DNA of 64,000 nt from Patagioenas fasciata (taxonomy: Eukaryota > Chordata > Aves > Columbiformes > Columbidae). The notes below the pieces were generated by a model that had not been told where the DNA came from, made no database searches, and saw nothing but the letters and a program-made list of their open reading frames with translations. Below are positions 28,222 through 35,946 of the stretch, in pieces; within the stretch, counting starts at the first letter, position 1, and each line of letters starts with the position of its first letter. The stretch is taken from positions 34,201,501-34,265,500 of the forward strand of contig NC_092523.1 in NCBI RefSeq assembly GCF_037038585.1, given 5' to 3'. The position numbers were made by a program, and so were the translations under genes.

Positions 28222-29035
28222 AACATGATTTTAAATGAACTTTCTAAACAAACAAAATTTCAGGGCAGGAAAATAGGTCTACAATAAAAAATTTTGTTGT
28301 TTGCAGGAGAATGAAAGGACTGAACCAGCTAAAGAATGGGTAAGAAAAGCAAACAAATATTCTTCTGATGATAGTGCAAGAAAAAAGAAAATTATTCTGT
28401 ATTTCTATTAGTGATTACAGGCAGCAGCTGGAAGGAAAATTGTCCAGTCCACCTCCTCGGTGCAAGGCAAGGCCAGTTACACTGTGGTGTAACCTCACCC
28501 TAAATGCTCCCAGTGATGGAAGTTCCACAATATCCTCAACTGCCCTCTATCCACTACTTCACTCTCTTTATCCAAGACAGCTCTTCTCAGCATTCTTCTT
28601 GCTGTAACTTAAGACCATTAGTTGCTCTTCAATCCACAAATACCTCTTTTGTTCACTGATGCACATAGAGAACTTCTCTCTCCTCCTGCCTTACTGGTGC
28701 AAGTTTTACTAAGGTCAATGACCACACTGACATGATAGAGTTGTAGTAGAACAGCAAGATATTATTTACCCTTCTGTTTCTCGAGACCTGTAGTACCTGG
28801 GATATTGTTCTGCATGATTCCCCTTCAATTGTGTCCAGAGCAAATACTGGAGACTGACAATTCAGATTTTAATCTCTGCCCAATCCTGAACAATTTATCT
28901 GTTTCAGAAAATCTCCCTATAGATTTTTCCAGCCATGAAAATCTGACAATGGGATTCTTAACAGCTAGATATATTTTTGGTGGTAAGAACCAGTCATACA
29001 TTATTAAAGTACAGCCTCCATTTGCTCTAAGGTTA

Positions 29036-29694
29036 TGTCCTGGTTTTGTTAAAAACAAGTTTCTTTTTTAGTGAATTTGCCTGTCAGCTAAAGCCTTCAT
29101 GTTAGCTGCATTTTCCTGGAGAACCCAACACATGTTTTGCTTAAACCTAGCAATGGAATGCAAACTTATTGATAAGCACGGATGGACATCTCGCGAGAGG
29201 GGCAACGAGAAAACTGATGACCGAGAGACTGACCAACGGTGTATAACATTCCATTCATGTGAATACTTCATATAAAAGTGGGAGATCACGAGGATCTCGT
29301 CCCTTTGCCCTTTTCCCTTTTTTCCTCATGGCTGACATTAGGAGAGGACCTTGCTGGTCGTCCCTGTGAACTGAGGCCTAGCGAGAGACTGAATCCAGCT
29401 CCGGTTGGCTACAGAGTCTAATCCAGGACTTTGGGTGCTGGCTCTGCAGTTGCTGAGACTTACAAGATTGGTTTTGTATATTTTGTATTATTTTCTCTAT
29501 TCTTATTAGTAGCATTAGTAAAACATCTTTAACTTTTCCAACTCTCTTCTCTCTGTCCTTCTTTCCCTCCCAATTGCCTGTCCTGAGTGGGAAGGGGGGA
29601 GAGGGAGGGGCAAAAGGGGGAAGTGGGGGGGAGAGGAGGTTAACAATACATCTGCCAGGGTTTAATTGTCACCCCGCAATCTTAACCCTCGACA
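29036..29694 (+). repeat. 5' LTR of the provirus
   Basis: Same length as the 3' LTR. Aligned by eye it differs at 7 of 659 positions, all transitions. It has a TATAAAA box at 29271-29277, and a pyrimidine-rich then G-rich 3' part. U3 is therefore about 260 bp and transcription should start near 29300. Confidence 0.93.
29271..29277 (+). promoter_or_regulatory. TATA box of the 5' LTR
   Basis: The string TATAAAA sits about 235 bp into the LTR, where a retroviral core promoter is expected. The same string is at 35518-35524 in the 3' LTR. Confidence 0.75.
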
Positions 29695-29700
29695 GATAAT

Positions 29701-29718
29701 TGGCGCCCAACGTGGGGC
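29701..29718 (+). promoter_or_regulatory. Primer binding site, tRNA-Lys1,2 type
   Basis: TGGCGCCCAACGTGGGGC lies 6 bp after the 5' LTR end. It is complementary to the 3' end of tRNA-Lys1,2, the primer used by foamy viruses and some lentiviruses. It would prime minus-strand DNA synthesis. ERV-L elements of mammals were named for a tRNA-Leu primer, so this choice differs from that group. Confidence 0.85.
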
Positions 29719-29884
29719 CAGAGAAAGGGGTAAATTTGGAGATTTTTGGCTTTTCTACTGCTCTGACGTACCTTTCAATTTTCTTGGCACGGTGCCAACT
29801 CATAGAGTTGTGATACTCGCGCGTCTGTTTGCTTCGGATATTATTTAGCGGTATTAAGGCAAAGTGAATTACATTGATTTAAAG

Positions 29885-31303
29885 ATGTTATGGCAAAAGT
29901 TGTATCAGTTATTTTCTACATTGTGCTCGCTGATCCTATATCTGTGTTGGTGTTTCTTTCTGAATCGAAGTATTCATTATATAACAACAAGAAACTGGAC
30001 AGCGGTCATGATGATTCTGTGTGGTATGGCACTGGTTTATTTCATTATACTGCAGCCGCTAATGAATTTCTACTCGCTTCTGCTTTACCTTGAAAAACCT
30101 CCAGGAGAGATTAAAGAGCAGAATGGCTCTATATTTGCTAATTGGTCAAGCGAATCTTTAGAAAGGCTGACTAACAATACTTTTGTGTTTTCGCTAGGAC
30201 AGTTTGCAAATGTTTTAGAGAACTTTGAATATCCTTGGAGCTTTGATAGAACTGTGATGGTGTTATCTGGTTTGCTGAATGTGTGTCAGTTTGTGTTACT
30301 GTTAAGAGAAATGAGGTTCAATAGGAGGTTTGCGTCTCTTTTTAGTCCTGAGATTTGCGGTGCGTCTTCGGAAGCTTTAGCAAAAACCACTCCTAGCCGC
30401 TCGAGAAAAGGCAAAACAGCCAAAGCTGCTGCTGCAGCCACTGCCCCCTCAACCGCGGCTTCACAGGCTGAAGCTACAGCTCCTCTGCAGAGCTCCTCTG
30501 CCAAGGTCGCTGCAGATAACGTTACTTCCCCAGCCTCAAAGGCTAACAAGGCAGCCCCCCCGTCTTCACACACTGGGCACTGTTGCTGCTGTAACCACAG
30601 CAATCACTGTGACAGTCATTCAGACTCTGGAAATGAATCAAATGATGGTGAACCCATATCAGCATCAGTTGCTGGTTGTAAGAAAGTCACTAGAAAGACT
30701 ACCCGTGCAGCAGGTGATGGCACAGGGCCAACATCAACCCAAGAGACATCATCAGGACAGGGTGGAGATGAAGTGACCACCACTCGGTCCTTTTCTCCAG
30801 GTGAGCTGAGAGATCTGCGAAAAGACTTTAGTCGTCGTGAAGGCGAGAATATTTTAACCTGGCTGCTGCGATGCTGGGACAATGGGGCAGAAACAATTGA
30901 ATTGGAAGGTGGTGAAGCCAGGCAGCTGGGATCTCTGTCAAAAGATTCCAGCATTGATAGGGCAATTTCAAGAGAGTCTAATGCTGCTACTCTCTGGACC
31001 CGACTCCTGGCAGCTATGAAAGTCAGATTTCCCTACAAGGAAGATTGTATATCCACGTTAGGGAAATGGAATACTATGGAGAGAGGTATCCAGTTCCTGA
31101 GAGAATTAGCTGTGCGAGAGATCATCTATCTAGGACCAAACAGCCAAGAGGGGACAGACCCAGATAGAATCAATTGTACAAAATCTATGTGGCGCAGATT
31201 TGTACAAAGTGCACCACCTGCATATGCTAAGTCATTGGCAGGAATGGTCTGGTCGGCTAGAGGTGCACAAGAAATTAATGAAGTGATTGAGCAGCTCCGG
31301 TAA
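29885..31303 (+). CDS. gag: Provirus gag-like protein with hydrophobic N-terminus
   Basis: The first ATG in the open frame is at 29885; the frame is open from 29864 but starts there with GTG. The product is 472 residues. Residues about 10-26, 38-68 and 121-141 are hydrophobic and could span a membrane. Between the second and third lie sequons at N80, N86 and N97. Residues about 160-230 are Ala/Ser/Thr/Lys-rich. Residues about 232-245 form a Cys/His cluster beginning HCCCCNHSNHC. From about 305 to the end is a capsid-like region with WLLRCWDNGA and ARQLGSLSKD, similar in pattern to the capsid region of mouse Fv1 and ERV-L Gag. I see no CCHC knuckle of the usual kind. It ends at TAA (31301-31303), and the same frame continues open as a coiled-coil segment. 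Confidence 0.8.
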   Translation: MLWQKLYQLFSTLCSLILYLCWCFFLNRSIHYITTRNWTAVMMILCGMALVYFIILQPLMNFYSLLLYLEKPPGEIKEQNGSIFANWSSESLERLTNNTFVFSLGQFANVLENFEYPWSFDRTVMVLSGLLNVCQFVLLLREMRFNRRFASLFSPEICGASSEALAKTTPSRSRKGKTAKAAAAATAPSTAASQAEATAPLQSSSAKVAADNVTSPASKANKAAPPSSHTGHCCCCNHSNHCDSHSDSGNESNDGEPISASVAGCKKVTRKTTRAAGDGTGPTSTQETSSGQGGDEVTTTRSFSPGELRDLRKDFSRREGENILTWLLRCWDNGAETIELEGGEARQLGSLSKDSSIDRAISRESNAATLWTRLLAAMKVRFPYKEDCISTLGKWNTMERGIQFLRELAVREIIYLGPNSQEGTDPDRINCTKSMWRRFVQSAPPAYAKSLAGMVWSARGAQEINEVIEQLR

Positions 31304-31732
31304 TTTGAGGACAGCCTTGCTGGTTCTCTACGGGCTTGTGTCTCTGCTGTGGAGAAACTGTGTGAAAAATCTGATGACCGGTTTGAAAAGCTGTTGCAAG
31401 AAATCAAAGAGCTCAGAGAAGACTCGTACCGTTCACGACCTGCACAAACCTATGTTTCAGCTGTTAGGAGAAGGCGTTTCCAATCTCGAGAGAGAGGGCA
31501 GAGACAGCCCACAAAAAGAGGTTCACTGTGGTTCTTCCTACATGAGCAGGGAGAAAACATGAATAAGTGGCATGGAAGGCCTACCTCAGAACTTCAGGAA
31601 CGAGTACGTGAGATAAAAGGAAAAACTCCTAGGAAGGTGGCTGCTCCAGTTTATAAAAGGAGCAGAAGAGATTCTGATGCTCTTGAAGGAACCTCTAATT
31701 CACACCCAGAGACTGTGCAAAACAGGAATTAG
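31304..31732 (+). pseudogene. Gag C-terminal segment, cut off by an in-frame stop
   Basis: This is the same frame as the upstream gag, continuing after the TAA at 31301-31303 until TAG at 31730-31732. It has a heptad-like stretch of about 40 residues (LRACVSAVEKLC, then DRFEKLLQEIKELRED) and then a very basic Arg/Lys-rich tail. A coiled coil followed by a basic tail fits a Gag C-terminus involved in assembly and RNA binding. Without an ATG of its own near the start it is probably not made in this copy, unless the TAA is read through. Confidence 0.65.
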
Positions 31733-33511
31733 AGGTGCCCTGCCTCCAACCAGGTGGAGGAAAGGGATAACAGAGTCTATTGGACTGTACAAATACTATG
31801 GCCTGGTACAACACAACCCCAGGAGTACAAAGCTTTAGTGGACACTGGTGCTCAGTGCACAATAATTCCTTCTAATTATAAAGGAACGCAATCCATCAGT
31901 ATTGTTGGAGTGACTGGGGGATCCCAGGAGCTGACTGTTGTAGAGGCTGAAATGAGCCTAACTGGAAAAAACTGGCAAAAGCATCCCATTGTGACTGGTC
32001 CAGATGCTCCGTGCATCCTTGGTATAGACTACCTCAGGAGAGGGTATTTTAAGGACCCAAAAGGGTATAGGTGGGCATTTGGTATAGCAGCTGTGGACAC
32101 TGAGAAAATTGAACAGCTGTCTGATTTGCCTGGTCTTTCAGATGACCCTTCTGTTGTAGGACTGCTGATGGTTGATGATCAGCAGGTGCCAATTGCTACC
32201 ACGACGGTGCATCGCCGGCAATATCGCACCAATCGAGACTCTTTGATTCCTATCCAGAAGCTGATCCGTCAATTGGAAAGCCAGGGTGTGATCAGTAAGA
32301 CTCGCTCACCTTTTAACAGCCCAATCTGGCCAGTGCGTAAGTCTAGTGACGAGTGGAGACTAACTGTAGACTATCGTGGCCTGAATGAAGTTACACCACC
32401 ACTCAGTGCTGCTGTGCCTGACATGCTAGAACTGCAATTTGAACTGGAGTCAAAGGCAGCCAAGTGGTATGCTACAATTGACATTGCTAATGCATTTTTC
32501 TCTATTCCTGTAGCAGCAGAGTGCAGGCCGCAGTTTGCTTTCACCTGGAGGGGCATCCAGTATACATGGAATTGCTTGCCCCAGGGGTGGAAACACAGTC
32601 CTACCATCTGTGGACTGATCCAGACCACGCTGGAGCAAGGTGAAGCTCCAGAGCACTTGCAATATATTGATGACATCATCGTATGGGGCGACACAGCAAA
32701 AGAAGTCTTCGAGAAAGGTGAGAGAATAATTCACATTCTTTTGGATGCTGGTTTTGCCATAAAACGAAGCAAGGTCAAGGGACCTGCACGAGAGATCCAG
32801 TTTTTAGGAATAAAATGGCAAGATGGCCGTCGTCAGATCCCAATGGATGTGATCAACAAAATTGCAGGAATGTCTCCACCTACTAATAAAAAGGAGACAC
32901 AGACTTTCTTGGGCGTTGTAGGTTTTTGGAGAATGCATATTCCTGACTACAGCCACATTGTGAGCCCTCTCTATCGAGTGACTCGTAAAAAGAACCAATT
33001 TGAGTGGGGCCCTGAACAACGAGAAGCCTTTGAACAAATTACGCGTGAGATAACTCATGCGGTGGTCCTTGGACCCGTCCGAACTGGACTAGATGTTAAA
33101 AATGTGCTCTACACCGCAGCCGGAGATAATGGACTTACCTGGAGCCTCTGGCAGAAAGCACCAGGAGAAACCCGAGGTCAACCCTTAGGTTTTTGGAGTC
33201 GAGGATACAAAGGATCTGAGGCCAACTATACTCCAACTGAAAAGGAGATACTAGCAGCATATGAAGGAGTTCGAGCTGCTTCAGAAGTGATCGGCACTGA
33301 AGCACAGCTCCTCCTGGCACCTCGACTGCCGGTGCTGAGCTGGATGTTCAAAGGGACGGTTCCCTCTCCACATCATGCAACCGAAGTTACATGGAGTAAA
33401 TGGATTGCACTGATCACGCAACGAGCTCGAATTGGAAGTCCCAACCGTCCAGGGATATTAGAAGTTATTACAGACTGGCCAGAAAGCAAAGACTGGGATG
33501 TCTCCAGATGA
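31733..33511 (+). pseudogene. pol: Provirus pol part 1: protease and reverse transcriptase
   Basis: The frame is the same as gag and is open directly after the TAG at 31730-31732; there is no upstream ATG start. The protease active site is Asp-Thr-Gly at 31841-31849, with ILGIDYL near its end. Reverse transcriptase follows, with LTVDYRGLNEV, the first catalytic Asp in ATIDIANAFF, LPQGWKHSP, and the YIDD box at 32663-32674. A tether region leads towards RNase H. The frame closes at TGA 33509-33511, in a region where the family protein would be expected to continue. The following frame carries the continuation, so a frameshift lies at about 33495-33511. Expression in an intact relative would depend on stop-codon readthrough or a fused gag-pol frame. 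Confidence 0.85.
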
Positions 33512-34676
33512 GGAGGAAGTAAAACATGCTGAAGAAGCACCACCATATAATACGCTTTCAGAGACTGATAAGCAGTATGCACTGTTCACAGATGGATCCT
33601 GTCGTCTTGTAGGAAAACATCGAAGGTGGAAAGCTGCTGTGTGGAGTCCCACACGACAAGTTACAGAAGCCACTGAAGGGCAAGGTGAATCCAGTCAGTT
33701 TGCAGAAGTGAAAGCCATCCAGCTGGCTTTGGACATTGCTGAACGAGAGAAGTGGCCAATACTTTATCTCTATACTGACTCATGGATGGTAGCAAATGCC
33801 TTGTGGGGGTGGCTACAGCAATGGAAGAAAAGCAACTGGCAGCGCAGAGGTAAACCCATTTGGGCTGCCACACTGTGGCAAGACATTGCTGCTCGGCTAG
33901 AGAGCCTGCCTGTGAAAGTTCGTCATGTAGATGCTCATGTGCCTAAAAGTCGAGCCACCGAGGAACATCTAAACAACCAACAAGCGGATCAAGCTGCTAA
34001 GATTAAAGTAGCTGAGGTGGGCTTGGACTGGCAACATAAAGGTGAACTTTTCCTAGCTCGGTGGCCCCATGATGCTTCAGGGCATCAAGGTAGAGATGCA
34101 ACATACAAATGGGCTCGTGATCGAGGGGTGGATTTAACTATGGACATTATTTCACAGGTTATTCATGAATGTGAAACTTGCGCCGAAATCAAACAAGCAA
34201 AACGGTTAAAACCTGTATGGTATGGGGGGCGATGGTTAAAGTATAAGTATGGAGAAGCTTGGCAGATTGATTATATTACACTTCCACAAACACGTCAAGG
34301 TAAGCGTTATGTACTTACAATGGTGGAAGCAACCACTGGATGGTTGGAAACATATGCCGTACCTCACGCTACAGCCCGAAATACTATCTTGGGCCTTGAG
34401 AAGCAAGTCCTCTGGCGGCACGGTACGCCAGAAAGAATTGAATCAGACAATGGTACTCATTTCAAAAACAGTGATATAGACAATTGGGCCAAAGAACATG
34501 GTATTGAGTGGGTATATCATATTCCATATCATGCACCAGCCTCTGGGAAAATTGAAAGGTACAATGGTTTGTTAAAAACTACACTAAAGGCACTTGGTGG
34601 TGGAACCTTTAAAAACTGGGATTCACATTTAGCAAAAGCCACTTGGTTGGTCAACACTAGGGGATCAACCAATTGA
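33498..34676 (+). pseudogene. pol: Provirus pol part 2: RNase H and integrase
   Basis: This frame overlaps the end of pol part 1 by 14 nt and differs in phase. RNase H is visible from FTDGSC (catalytic Asp at 33591-33593), AEVKAIQLAL, YTDSWMVANAL and HVDAHVPKS. Integrase follows with a His-His-Cys-Cys zinc-binding region ending in CETCAEIK. The catalytic triad is Asp 34269-34271, Asp 34446-34448 and Glu 34554-34556, with the canonical 35 residues between the second and third. The frame stops at TGA 34674-34676, but the same frame stays open to TGA at 34917-34919 and carries a plausible integrase C-terminal domain. This copy therefore has a premature stop in integrase. Confidence 0.85.
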
Positions 34677-34919
34677 GCCGGGCCTGCCCAATCAGAAATT
34701 CTACGGACTGTAGAAGGAGATAAAGTCCCTGTAGTACACATGAAAAATATCTTAGGAAAGGCAGTCTGGGTTACTCCTGCCTCAGGCAAAGGCAAACCTA
34801 TTCATGGGATTGTTTTTGCCCAGGGACCTGGCAGCACCTGGTGGGTGATGCTTAAGGATGGAGAAGTTCGGTGTGTACCTCAAGGGGATTTGATTTTAGG
34901 TGAAAATACGCAATGCTGA
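34677..34919 (+). pseudogene. Integrase C-terminal remnant after a premature stop
   Basis: Eighty open codons lie in the integrase frame after the stop at 34674-34676. The segment includes VEGDKVPVVHMKN and a Trp-rich GSTWWVMLKDGE stretch, as expected of the beta-rich DNA-binding end of integrase. It is separated from the catalytic core by the stop, so it is not made as part of the enzyme in this copy. Confidence 0.7.
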
Positions 34920-35282
34920 ACTGTATGATGTGAATTGCCGCACTAACAATGTTTAATAAGTGTCTTTCAGATCAAGACAATGGTGATGAAACTAGAGCTA
35001 GCTTCTTCGAGTGGCGCCTGACACCTTCTTCAAAGTTGGTGTCCTTAACCCACAAACAGTGGTCATGAGATGCACTTGTACCATTTTTCCTGCCCTGGGA
35101 GACTGTTGTGACAAAATGAACTTAATGAACTTTTCAAAGGATGGTCCACTGATTAATTACTCCTGTGTATATATGTACATATGTATATATATATATAGTA
35201 GTAGTGATTAATTAGATTGTATTGATAGATTGTATTGATAAGGTTTAAGTATTCAGTGAATGTCATATTATAAGGGGTGGAA
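34920..35282 (+). other. Provirus 3' end before the LTR, no env or dUTPase seen
   Basis: Only 363 bp separate the integrase frame from the 3' LTR. It holds a short open frame (35011-35211) without a recognisable domain, a TA-rich tract at about 35167-35198, and a polypurine run (AAGGGGTGGAA, 35272-35282) directly before the LTR that would prime plus-strand synthesis. Confidence 0.75.
35272..35282 (+). promoter_or_regulatory. Polypurine tract
   Basis: AAGGGGTGGAA ends exactly at the first base of the 3' LTR, the position needed for plus-strand priming. One T interrupts it. Confidence 0.7.
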
Positions 35283-35941
35283 TGTCCTGGTTTTGTTAAA
35301 AACAAGTTTCTTTTTTAGTGAATTTGCCTGTCAGCTAAAGCCTTCATGTTAGCTGCATTTTCCTGGAGAACCCAACACATGTTTTGCTTAAACCTAGCAA
35401 TGGAATGCAAACTTATTGATAAGCACGGATGGACATCTCGCGAGAGGGGCAACGAGAAAACTGATGACCGAGAGACTGACCAATGGTGTATAACATTCCA
35501 TTCACGTGAATACTTCATATAAAAGTGGGAGATCACGAGGATCTCGTCCCTTTGCCCTTTTCCCTTTTTTCCTCATGGCTGACATTAGGAGAGGACCTTG
35601 CTGGTCGTCCCTGTGAACTGAGGCCTAGCGAGAGACTGAATCCAGCTCCGGTTGGCTACAGAGTCTAATCCAGGACTTTGGGTGCTGGCTCTACAGTTGC
35701 TGAGACTTACAAGATTGGTTTTGTATATTTTGTATTATTTTCTCTATTCTTATTAGTAGCATTAGTAAAACATCTTTAACTTTTCCAACTCTCTTCTCTC
35801 TGTCCTTCTTTCCCTCCCGATCGCCTGTCCTGAGTGGGAAGGGGGGAGAGGGAGGGGCAAAAGGGGGAAGTGGGGGGGGGAGGAGGTTAACAATACATCT
35901 GCCAGGGTTTGATTGTCACCCCGCAATCTTAACCCTCGACA
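35283..35941 (+). repeat. 3' LTR of the provirus
   Basis: Same ends and same length as the 5' LTR, with 7 transition differences. The TATAAAA box is at 35518-35524. The target duplication GGTTA follows at 35942-35946. Confidence 0.93.
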
Positions 35942-35946
35942 GGTTA

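What the first reader, a model, noticed from the sequence alone, without database searches (positions are those of the whole stretch)
29885..30330. Gag-like protein begins with a three-helix hydrophobic, glycosylation-prone domain
Seen: from the first ATG the provirus gag frame has hydrophobic segments at residues about 10-26, 38-68 and 121-141. Three N-X-S/T sites (N80, N86, N97) fall only in the loop between the second and third. Known: retroviral Gag usually reaches membranes by myristoylation or a basic patch, and this one has no N-terminal Gly for myristoylation. Inference: this Gag may be a multi-pass membrane protein with a lumenal loop and a cytoplasmic capsid, a different way to target membranes and perhaps an env-free route through the cell. 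It could be an acquired domain.
Basis: partly seen in the sequence, partly recalled or inferred. Interest (0 to 1): 0.75.

Follow-up and report, generated by a model that had tools for sequence, protein, structure and literature searches.

The report
Membrane-spanning Gag in bird retroviral elements
A group of envelope-less, foamy-virus-related elements in bird genomes carries a Gag protein that starts with a conserved, selected, glycosylation-prone hydrophobic domain, which suggests that their particles form on internal cell membranes by a route not used by standard retroviruses.

Summary
From ATG 29885 the gag frame opens with three hydrophobic helices (residues 8-26, 38-56, 122-140; no Gly2) ahead of a linker and a class III capsid. 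The domain survives both proposed refutations. Sixteen of 19 aligned N-termini begin ML. Changes shared between copies are mainly synonymous (3 N: 9 S in 14 copies ranked by non-coding leader; 16 N: 28 S in 46 distinct copies). A pigeon-family profile matches one from raptor, ibis, manakin, duck, goose and unnamed elements over 120 columns (E 1e-9). Charges and a recurrent sequon fit helix 2 - lumenal glycosylated loop - helix 3 - cytosolic capsid. Helix 1 is optional: 120 exact matches to a deletion junction, 611 to the intact start. No env frame was seen; RT and integrase match foamy viruses best. Best reading: Gag is inserted co-translationally into the ER and capsids assemble on, or bud into, internal membranes. 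Membrane insertion is very likely; topology and route are inferred. Ten literature searches showed no comparable Gag.

The parts
29036..29694 (+). 5' LTR (TG...CA); the 5-bp duplication GGTTA flanks the provirus (29031-29035 and 35942-35946)
   Evidence: 654 of 661 aligned columns identical between the LTRs (7 differences, no gaps; one flanking base on each side is in the 661)
29701..29718 (+). Primer binding site, reads like tRNA-Lys(1,2)
   Evidence: sequence; tRNA identity recalled, not computed
29885..31303 (+). gag frame of this copy from its ATG; ends early compared with 80 of the 90 matches listed
29885..30328 (+). N-terminal hydrophobic (membrane) domain of Gag, residues 1-148
29906..29962 (+). 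hydrophobic helix 1, residues 8-26 (absent from one subfamily)
29963..29995 (+). helix 1-2 connector, residues 27-37, 2 K/R and no D/E, sequons N27 and N37
29996..30052 (+). hydrophobic helix 2, best window residues 38-56 (predicted helix runs to about 70)
30053..30247 (+). predicted lumenal loop, residues 57-121, sequons N80 (30122), N86 (30140), N97 (30173), 3 K/R against 8 D/E; ends in ENFEYPW, a motif shared with other bird families
30248..30304 (+). hydrophobic helix 3, residues 122-140, followed by 10 K/R and 3 D/E in 40 residues
30329..30784 (+). low-complexity linker, residues 149-300 (boundary chosen by me); other bird families have a WQGVW...FTPEQ domain here
30785..31300 (+). start of the capsid region, residues 301-472, the part shared with the other avian class III Gags aligned
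31754..34676 (+). protease, RT, RNase H and integrase in two frames (31754-33511, 33498-34676), closest to foamy virus among solved proteins; an in-frame stop ends the second frame
34677..35282 (+). integrase tail (to about 34918) and about 360 bases with no env-like frame
35283..35941 (+). 3' LTR

Best explanation
The element is an env-less, spuma-related (class III) bird ERV whose Gag is a membrane protein. The ribosome making Gag is probably brought to the ER by the hydrophobic N-terminus. Helix 2 enters, the 65-residue loop passes into the lumen and is N-glycosylated, helix 3 returns, and the basic segment, linker and capsid stay in the cytosol. Helix 1, where present, adds a further pass or lies in the membrane surface. 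Capsids then assemble on the cytosolic face of ER-derived membranes and may bud inward, and protease may later free the capsid by cutting between helix 3 and capsid. The integral anchor does the work that myristate plus a basic patch do in orthoretroviral Gag, or that binding to the Env leader does in foamy virus. Shown here: the domain is in frame with capsid, under purifying selection, and shared by several bird families. Strongly inferred: membrane insertion. Inferred: lumenal loop and cytosolic capsid. Speculative: assembly site, cleavage, release.
For: Three hydrophobic segments, rare under shuffling. Purifying selection: the 14 copies ranked first by the non-coding leader give shared changes 3 N: 9 S (pN/pS 0.10, binomial P 1.6e-4) and singletons 8 N: 11 S (P 9e-4); 46 distinct copies give shared 16 N: 28 S (pN/pS 0.17, P 6e-9). 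In the 30-copy sample the linker is looser (shared 15 N: 8 S against 5 N: 14 S in the domain, Fisher P 0.016). Profile match over 120 columns, hhalign probability 96.4, E 1.1e-9; reversed profile 1.6%, best of 30 column shuffles 10.8%. A separate search with P0005 aligned its residues 4-149 (to 153 in some rows) to window-family copies apart from the capsid match, E 2.3e-5 to 8.1e-4. Sixteen of 19 aligned N-termini begin ML, two of them (P0026, P0122) further in. A sequon lies in the helix 2-3 loop of 12 of 16 representatives against 6.2 expected from shuffled loops (P 0.002, treating them as independent); 11 of 19 rows carry an NxT/NxS at one aligned place. K/R exceed D/E after helix 3 in 14 of 16; D/E equal or exceed K/R in the loop in 14 of 16; the connector has K/R in 13 of the 13 with a helix 1 window. 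The eight helix-1-less copies keep loop and helix 3. AF2 puts helices at 2-27, 36-70 and 120-152, plus two in the loop, at low confidence. Precedents: MuERV-L particles accumulate in the ER (PMC5930517 passage); SRP brings IAP Gag to the ER membrane (PMC3945221 passage).
Against: No experiment. Neither AF2 model is good (mean pLDDT 53 and 56). The passerine/galliform and mousebird/crane groups have hydrophobic segments at the same place but no significant similarity to the pigeon profile (0.4% and 0.3%) or to the mixed group (5.5% and 12.3%). Four of 16 representatives lack a loop sequon. Some relatives have K/R before helix 1 (sequences), which does not suit a lumenal N-terminus. The stretch after helix 3 is acidic in the duck representative (2 K/R, 8 D/E) and about even in the goose one (5, 6). 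Singletons in the 46-copy set are close to neutral (50 N: 22 S, P 0.07). Of eight pairwise comparisons with the window copy, two gave dN/dS near one (L040 0.87, L024 1.16) and six 0.04-0.53. Eight helix-1-less copies gave 3 N: 2 S shared, too few to judge.
Confidence: 0.62

Rival explanations
1. The membrane domain is cut off and works as a separate accessory protein (as MLV glycoGag does through its leader), acting on host membrane proteins or making pores, while capsid proper assembles in the cytosol.
For: The domain is followed by a low-complexity linker; MLV glycoGag is a membrane-bound Gag form acting on SERINC5 in the ER (PMC12530543 passages); helix 1 is dispensable.
Against: No separate start for a plain Gag was seen, though none was searched for systematically; in the longer relatives aligned, the domain is in frame with capsid; the element has no env, so a role in protecting virion entry is hard to see.
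Confidence: 0.15
2. Opposite topology: the N-terminus acts as a signal and the capsid itself enters the lumen, as reported for Ty1 Gag or predicted for MLV glycoGag.
For: Ty1 Gag is translocated into the ER lumen (PMC3945221 passages); glycoGag is reported as type II with Gag outside, though type I has also been reported (PMC12530543 passages); downstream sequons exist at N212, N237, N250 and N430.
Against: K/R exceed D/E after helix 3 in 14 of 16 representatives and a sequon recurs in the helix 2-3 loop; a lumenal loop followed by one more helix puts capsid in the cytosol.
Confidence: 0.12
3. The hydrophobic part is a 5' relic or a soluble helix bundle: Gag starts downstream or does not enter membranes.
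For: One subfamily starts later; many database gag models begin downstream.
Against: Purifying selection on codons 1-148; ML start in 16 of 19 aligned N-termini; between the presumed transcription start and the gag AUG only one other AUG (29328, 13 codons), and a purine at -3 of the gag AUG; the subfamily keeps helices 2 and 3.
Confidence: 0.06
4. About origin rather than function: the domain was captured from a host or viral membrane protein, for example an Env leader fused to Gag when env was lost.
For: Foamy virus Env leader is a membrane-anchored type II subunit that binds Gag, and foamy Gag itself has no membrane signal (PMC7828637 passages).
Against: No donor found; no comparison with any Env leader was made.
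Confidence: 0.15

Closest known systems
MuERV-L / ERV-L (mammalian class III ERVs)
   Same: Env-less, spuma-related, Gag without myristoylation signal or zinc finger; MuERV-L particles accumulate in the ER (PMC5930517, PMC8278194 and PMC2717909 passages)
   Different: MuERV-L has a dUTPase (PMC2717909 passage); none matched here. ERV-L is named for a leucine primer (recalled); here the site reads as Lys. Whether mammalian ERV-L Gag has an N-terminal membrane domain was not tested: no mammalian sequence was in hand
IAP (mouse class II retrotransposon)
   Same: SRP interacts with its Gag and brings it to the ER membrane, without translocation in vitro (PMC3945221 passage); env-less intracellular particles (recalled)
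   Different: Class II (recalled); its ER signal is recalled as one hydrophobic N-terminal stretch, not a multi-helix domain with a glycosylation loop; no sequence comparison was made
MLV glycosylated Gag
   Same: Membrane-bound, N-glycosylated Gag product
   Different: An N-terminally extended form started at a CUG upstream of Gag, predicted type II with one membrane span (PMC12530543 passages); here the domain is in the main Gag frame from its ATG
Foamy viruses
   Same: Closest solved relatives of RT and integrase; Gag without zinc knuckle
   Different: Foamy Gag has no membrane-targeting signal and relies on Env (PMC7828637 passages); this element has no env and a hydrophobic domain in Gag
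XtERV-S of frogs
   Same: Class III, ERV-L-related gag and pol, no myristoylation signal (PMC8278194 passages)
   Different: Has env; Gag has polybasic regions and was seen at the plasma membrane and in the nucleus; no membrane domain of Gag is mentioned in the passages seen

Membership tests
Class III (spuma-related / ERV-L-like) ERV | RT and integrase closest to foamy viruses | tested here: met
   best PDB sequence matches Pr125Pol 7o0h (E 1.8e-46; that Pr125Pol is foamy is recalled) and PFV integrase 3l2q (E 2.3e-15); no tree was built
Class III (spuma-related / ERV-L-like) ERV | no CCHC zinc knuckle in Gag | tested here: met
   pattern scan of 29885-31300 and 31349-31732
ERV-L in the strict sense | dUTPase in pol | tested here: not met
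   no dUTPase match in either pol frame at E<=10; the open tail after 34676 is about 80 codons
ERV-L in the strict sense | leucine tRNA primer site | tested here: not met
   site at 29701 reads as Lys(1,2); identity recalled
ERV-L in the strict sense | major homology region QX3EX4(hydrophobic)X2R in capsid (pattern from PMC8278194) | tested here: not met
   strict pattern absent from 29885-31300 and 31349-31732; a degenerate form was not sought
ERV-L in the strict sense | no env | tested here: met
   no env-like frame between pol and 3' LTR
Membrane-spanning Gag | two or more hydrophobic helices long enough to span | tested here: met
   hydropathy only; no dedicated membrane-protein predictor was available
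Membrane-spanning Gag | membrane insertion and glycosylation in cells | not testable with these tools
   needs the assay in the next steps
Myristoylated Gag | Gly at position 2 | tested here: not met
   MLW...
MLV-type glycoGag | long extension from an upstream non-AUG start beside a plain Gag | tested here: not met
   the frame opens only 9 codons before the ATG (stop at 29855-29857, sequence)

The most novel reading that the evidence does not exclude
A bird lineage of spuma-related elements uses a polytopic (2-3 helix), N-glycosylated integral-membrane Gag as its principal structural protein: a third way of putting Gag on membranes besides lipidation/basic patch and Env-leader binding, giving an env-free cycle on internal membranes.
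Probability: 0.5. Interest if true: 0.8.

Novelty: new variant of a known kind. Interest (0 to 1): 0.62.

Why it matters
Gag is usually described as a cytosolic protein that reaches membranes through a lipid, a basic patch or Env. A foamy virus review states that foamy Gag has no membrane-targeting signal and that Gag of env-less LTR elements consists only of capsid and nucleocapsid, some lacking the latter (PMC7828637 passages). A conserved multi-helix membrane domain at the front of Gag in an env-less group would add another solution and give a simple, testable reason why such elements stay inside the cell. The helix-1-plus and helix-1-minus subfamilies in one genome are a natural deletion series.

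Tried and rejected
Family libraries gave only sub-threshold matches to the domain (DUF4184 E 0.019, DUF4131 E 0.28, PIG-P E 0.33) and none to it in NCBIfam; rejected as hydrophobic composition. PDB sequence and fold searches gave nothing usable. The fold search used a model of mean pLDDT 56, so its failure says little; the pdb_via and viral fold libraries were not run. I first counted polymorphism in the 30 copies ranked by protein similarity, a sample biased towards few amino-acid changes, and repeated it with copies ranked by the non-coding leader: the 14 first-ranked of 40 listed; the other 26 were left out of that count. A 47-copy count included L038, which is frameshifted and inflated the singletons (83 N: 29 S), and was redone without it. 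The 46-copy set is those of 80 loci with an ungapped domain at least 401 of 444 bases identical to the window, duplicates dropped; gapped, truncated and helix-1-less copies are not in it; 3 of the 46 (L040, L055, L078) have a stop in the domain. A link between the pigeon domain and the passerine/galliform or mousebird/crane groups was tested and not supported. Late-domain patterns: only PPAY at residue 444; in the alignment a PPxY stands there in 2 of 16 rows (window, P0007). Whether mammalian ERV-L Gag shares the domain was not tested. Literature: ten searches; no listed title or abstract start describes a membrane domain in avian ERV-L Gag. Six papers were seen as passages only (PMC5930517, PMC8278194, PMC2717909, PMC3945221, PMC7828637, PMC12530543), the rest as listings; the library lacks most subscription papers. 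My note says all hits are birds; that is wrong (many are unnamed and two are filed under Klebsiella).

Full report
WHAT IS THERE. The window holds one provirus on the + strand: LTRs at 29036-29694 and 35283-35941, with 7 differences in 661 aligned columns and a GGTTA duplication on both sides. A primer site follows at 29701 that reads as tRNA-Lys(1,2) by recall. Then come gag from ATG 29885, pol in two frames to 34676, and no env-like frame before the 3' LTR. Pfam finds protease, RT, RNase H and integrase. The best solved relatives of RT and integrase are Pr125Pol (7o0h, E 1.8e-46; foamy by recall) and PFV integrase (3l2q, E 2.3e-15). The element is therefore spuma-related class III and ERV-L-like; no dUTPase and no strict MHR pattern were found. 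The host genome (G000, 1.45 Gb) is unnamed. The closest named proteins are from Columba livia (90% over 57% of the query) and Patagioenas fasciata (92% over 54%), so a pigeon or dove is likely but untested.

THE OBSERVATION. Residues 1-148 hold three hydrophobic helices, best windows 8-26, 38-56 and 122-140. Three windows >=1.6 occur there and none in the rest of the frame; 25 of 20,000 whole-Gag shuffles reach three. Sequons N80, N86 and N97 are real, but N27 and N37 lie between helices 1 and 2 and four more lie downstream, so the claim that sequons fall only in the loop fails. There is no Gly2.

IS IT A REAL PART OF GAG: START SITE. The genome search returned 90 matches, the 90 scored of 4,373 candidates, and all 90 run from residue 1; these are the best matches by design. 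An exact pattern over the gag start is found 611 times. Sixteen of 19 aligned N-termini from several families begin ML; two of these (P0026, P0122) begin further in, and P0032, P0077 and P0085 begin otherwise. A subfamily carries a deletion from the end of the leader to just before helix 2; its junction is found 120 times exactly. In eight such copies examined the ATG that opens the domain lies at helix 2, and the loop with its sequons and helix 3 are kept. Copies inside large repeats, such as those of contig C47, may be counted many times in both numbers, and the listings were cut at the first places.

IS IT A REAL PART OF GAG: SELECTION. The 14 copies ranked first by their non-coding leader (of 40 listed) gave shared changes 3 N: 9 S and singletons 8 N: 11 S where about 77% N is expected without constraint (P 1.6e-4 and 9e-4). 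Forty-six distinct copies gave shared 16 N: 28 S (P 6e-9) and singletons 50 N: 22 S (P 0.07); without the four oldest (L040, L055, L057, L060) the figures are 7 N: 19 S and 22 N: 16 S (P 6e-8 and 0.006). This is constraint while replicating with less of it after insertion. Pairwise dN/dS against the window copy ran from 0.04 to 1.16 over eight copies, and among four older ones 0.36-0.52. In the 30-copy sample, biased by its selection, the domain had shared 5 N: 14 S and the linker 15 N: 8 S. N86 and N97 are kept in 46 of 46, N80 in 43 of 46.

HOW WIDE IT IS. Two protein searches with other families' N-termini returned 41 and 13 proteins; all those named by species are from birds. Of the 41, ten cover 87% or more of the query; many cover only the part behind helix 3. 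Gags beginning with hydrophobic segments come from pigeon, raptors (Morphnus, Buteo), ibis (Theristicus), cranes, duck, goose, mousebird and manakin, besides unnamed sources, and by eye from quail (P0151). Profile comparison supports common descent of the pigeon domain with a mixed group of 12 sequences (raptor, ibis, manakin, duck, goose and unnamed): probability 96.4%, E 1.1e-9 over 120 columns, including the ENFEYPW motif before helix 3. Reversal gives 1.6% and the best of 30 column shuffles 10.8%. The passerine/galliform and mousebird/crane groups are not linked at this level to either or to each other (0.1-12.3%); there position and hydrophobicity agree, not the sequence. Most other families aligned have a further WQGVW...FTPEQ domain after helix 3 that the pigeon family lacks.

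TOPOLOGY. In 12 of 16 representatives the helix 2-3 loop has a sequon, against 6.2 expected from shuffled loops (P 0.002 if independent, which relatives are not). K/R exceed D/E in the 40 residues after helix 3 in 14 of 16; D/E equal or exceed K/R in the loop in 14 of 16; the connector has K/R in 13 of 13 with a helix 1 window. This fits a lumenal loop and cytosolic capsid. Exceptions: duck, goose, mousebird and one crane representative lack the sequon, and duck and goose are not positive after helix 3. K/R before helix 1 in some families leaves open whether helix 1 spans. AF2 models agree on helices but are poor, and no PDB fold matches.

MECHANISM. The best-supported reading is co-translational insertion of Gag in the ER, a glycosylated lumenal loop, cytosolic capsid, and assembly on or budding into internal membranes. 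Shown: in-frame domain, selection, spread. Strongly inferred: membrane insertion. Inferred: orientation. Speculative: assembly site and later cleavage in the linker. Precedents seen in passages: MuERV-L particles accumulate in the ER (PMC5930517); SRP brings IAP Gag to the ER membrane without translocation in vitro (PMC3945221); glycoGag is a membrane Gag form (PMC12530543). For foamy virus, a membrane signal fused to Gag lets particles leave without Env but they are not infectious, which the review links to aberrant assembly and impaired disassembly and to possibly permanent anchoring (PMC7828637); an element with a natural anchor therefore probably needs a release step (inference).

NOVELTY. 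Ten searches of an open-access library listed no report of a multi-helix membrane domain in ERV-L-type Gag; subscription papers are mostly missing, so this is weak evidence of absence. The element is of a known kind; its Gag architecture is a new variant, and if the topology is confirmed it would be a distinct way of membrane targeting.

Noticed in passing
G000 contig C47, about 9.8-43.3 Mb (not in the window): Several dozen matches with the same score and frame length (420 codons) to a window-related gag recur every few hundred kilobases, as in a large amplified array; C47 may be a sex chromosome, not tested.
   Followed up: no
P0127, P0128, P0055 and P0099, P0120 (protein database): Raptor and owl gene models named USP4 and AMFR match ERV Gag, suggesting an exonised Gag piece or model error; many Gag proteins of Grus japonensis are named 'ubiquitin carboxyl-terminal hydrolase 4'.
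   Followed up: no
window 29701-29718: Primer site reads as tRNA-Lys(1,2), the primer of foamy viruses, rather than leucine as in ERV-L (all three recalled; sequence).
   Followed up: no
L039, L047, L056, L058, L059, L061, L062, L070; matching window stretch about 29849-30010: A deletion removing the end of the leader and helix 1 marks a widely dispersed subfamily (120 exact junction matches).
   Followed up: partly
P0008, P0043 (protein database): Bird-like ERV Gags filed under Klebsiella pneumoniae, presumably contamination of the assemblies.
   Followed up: no
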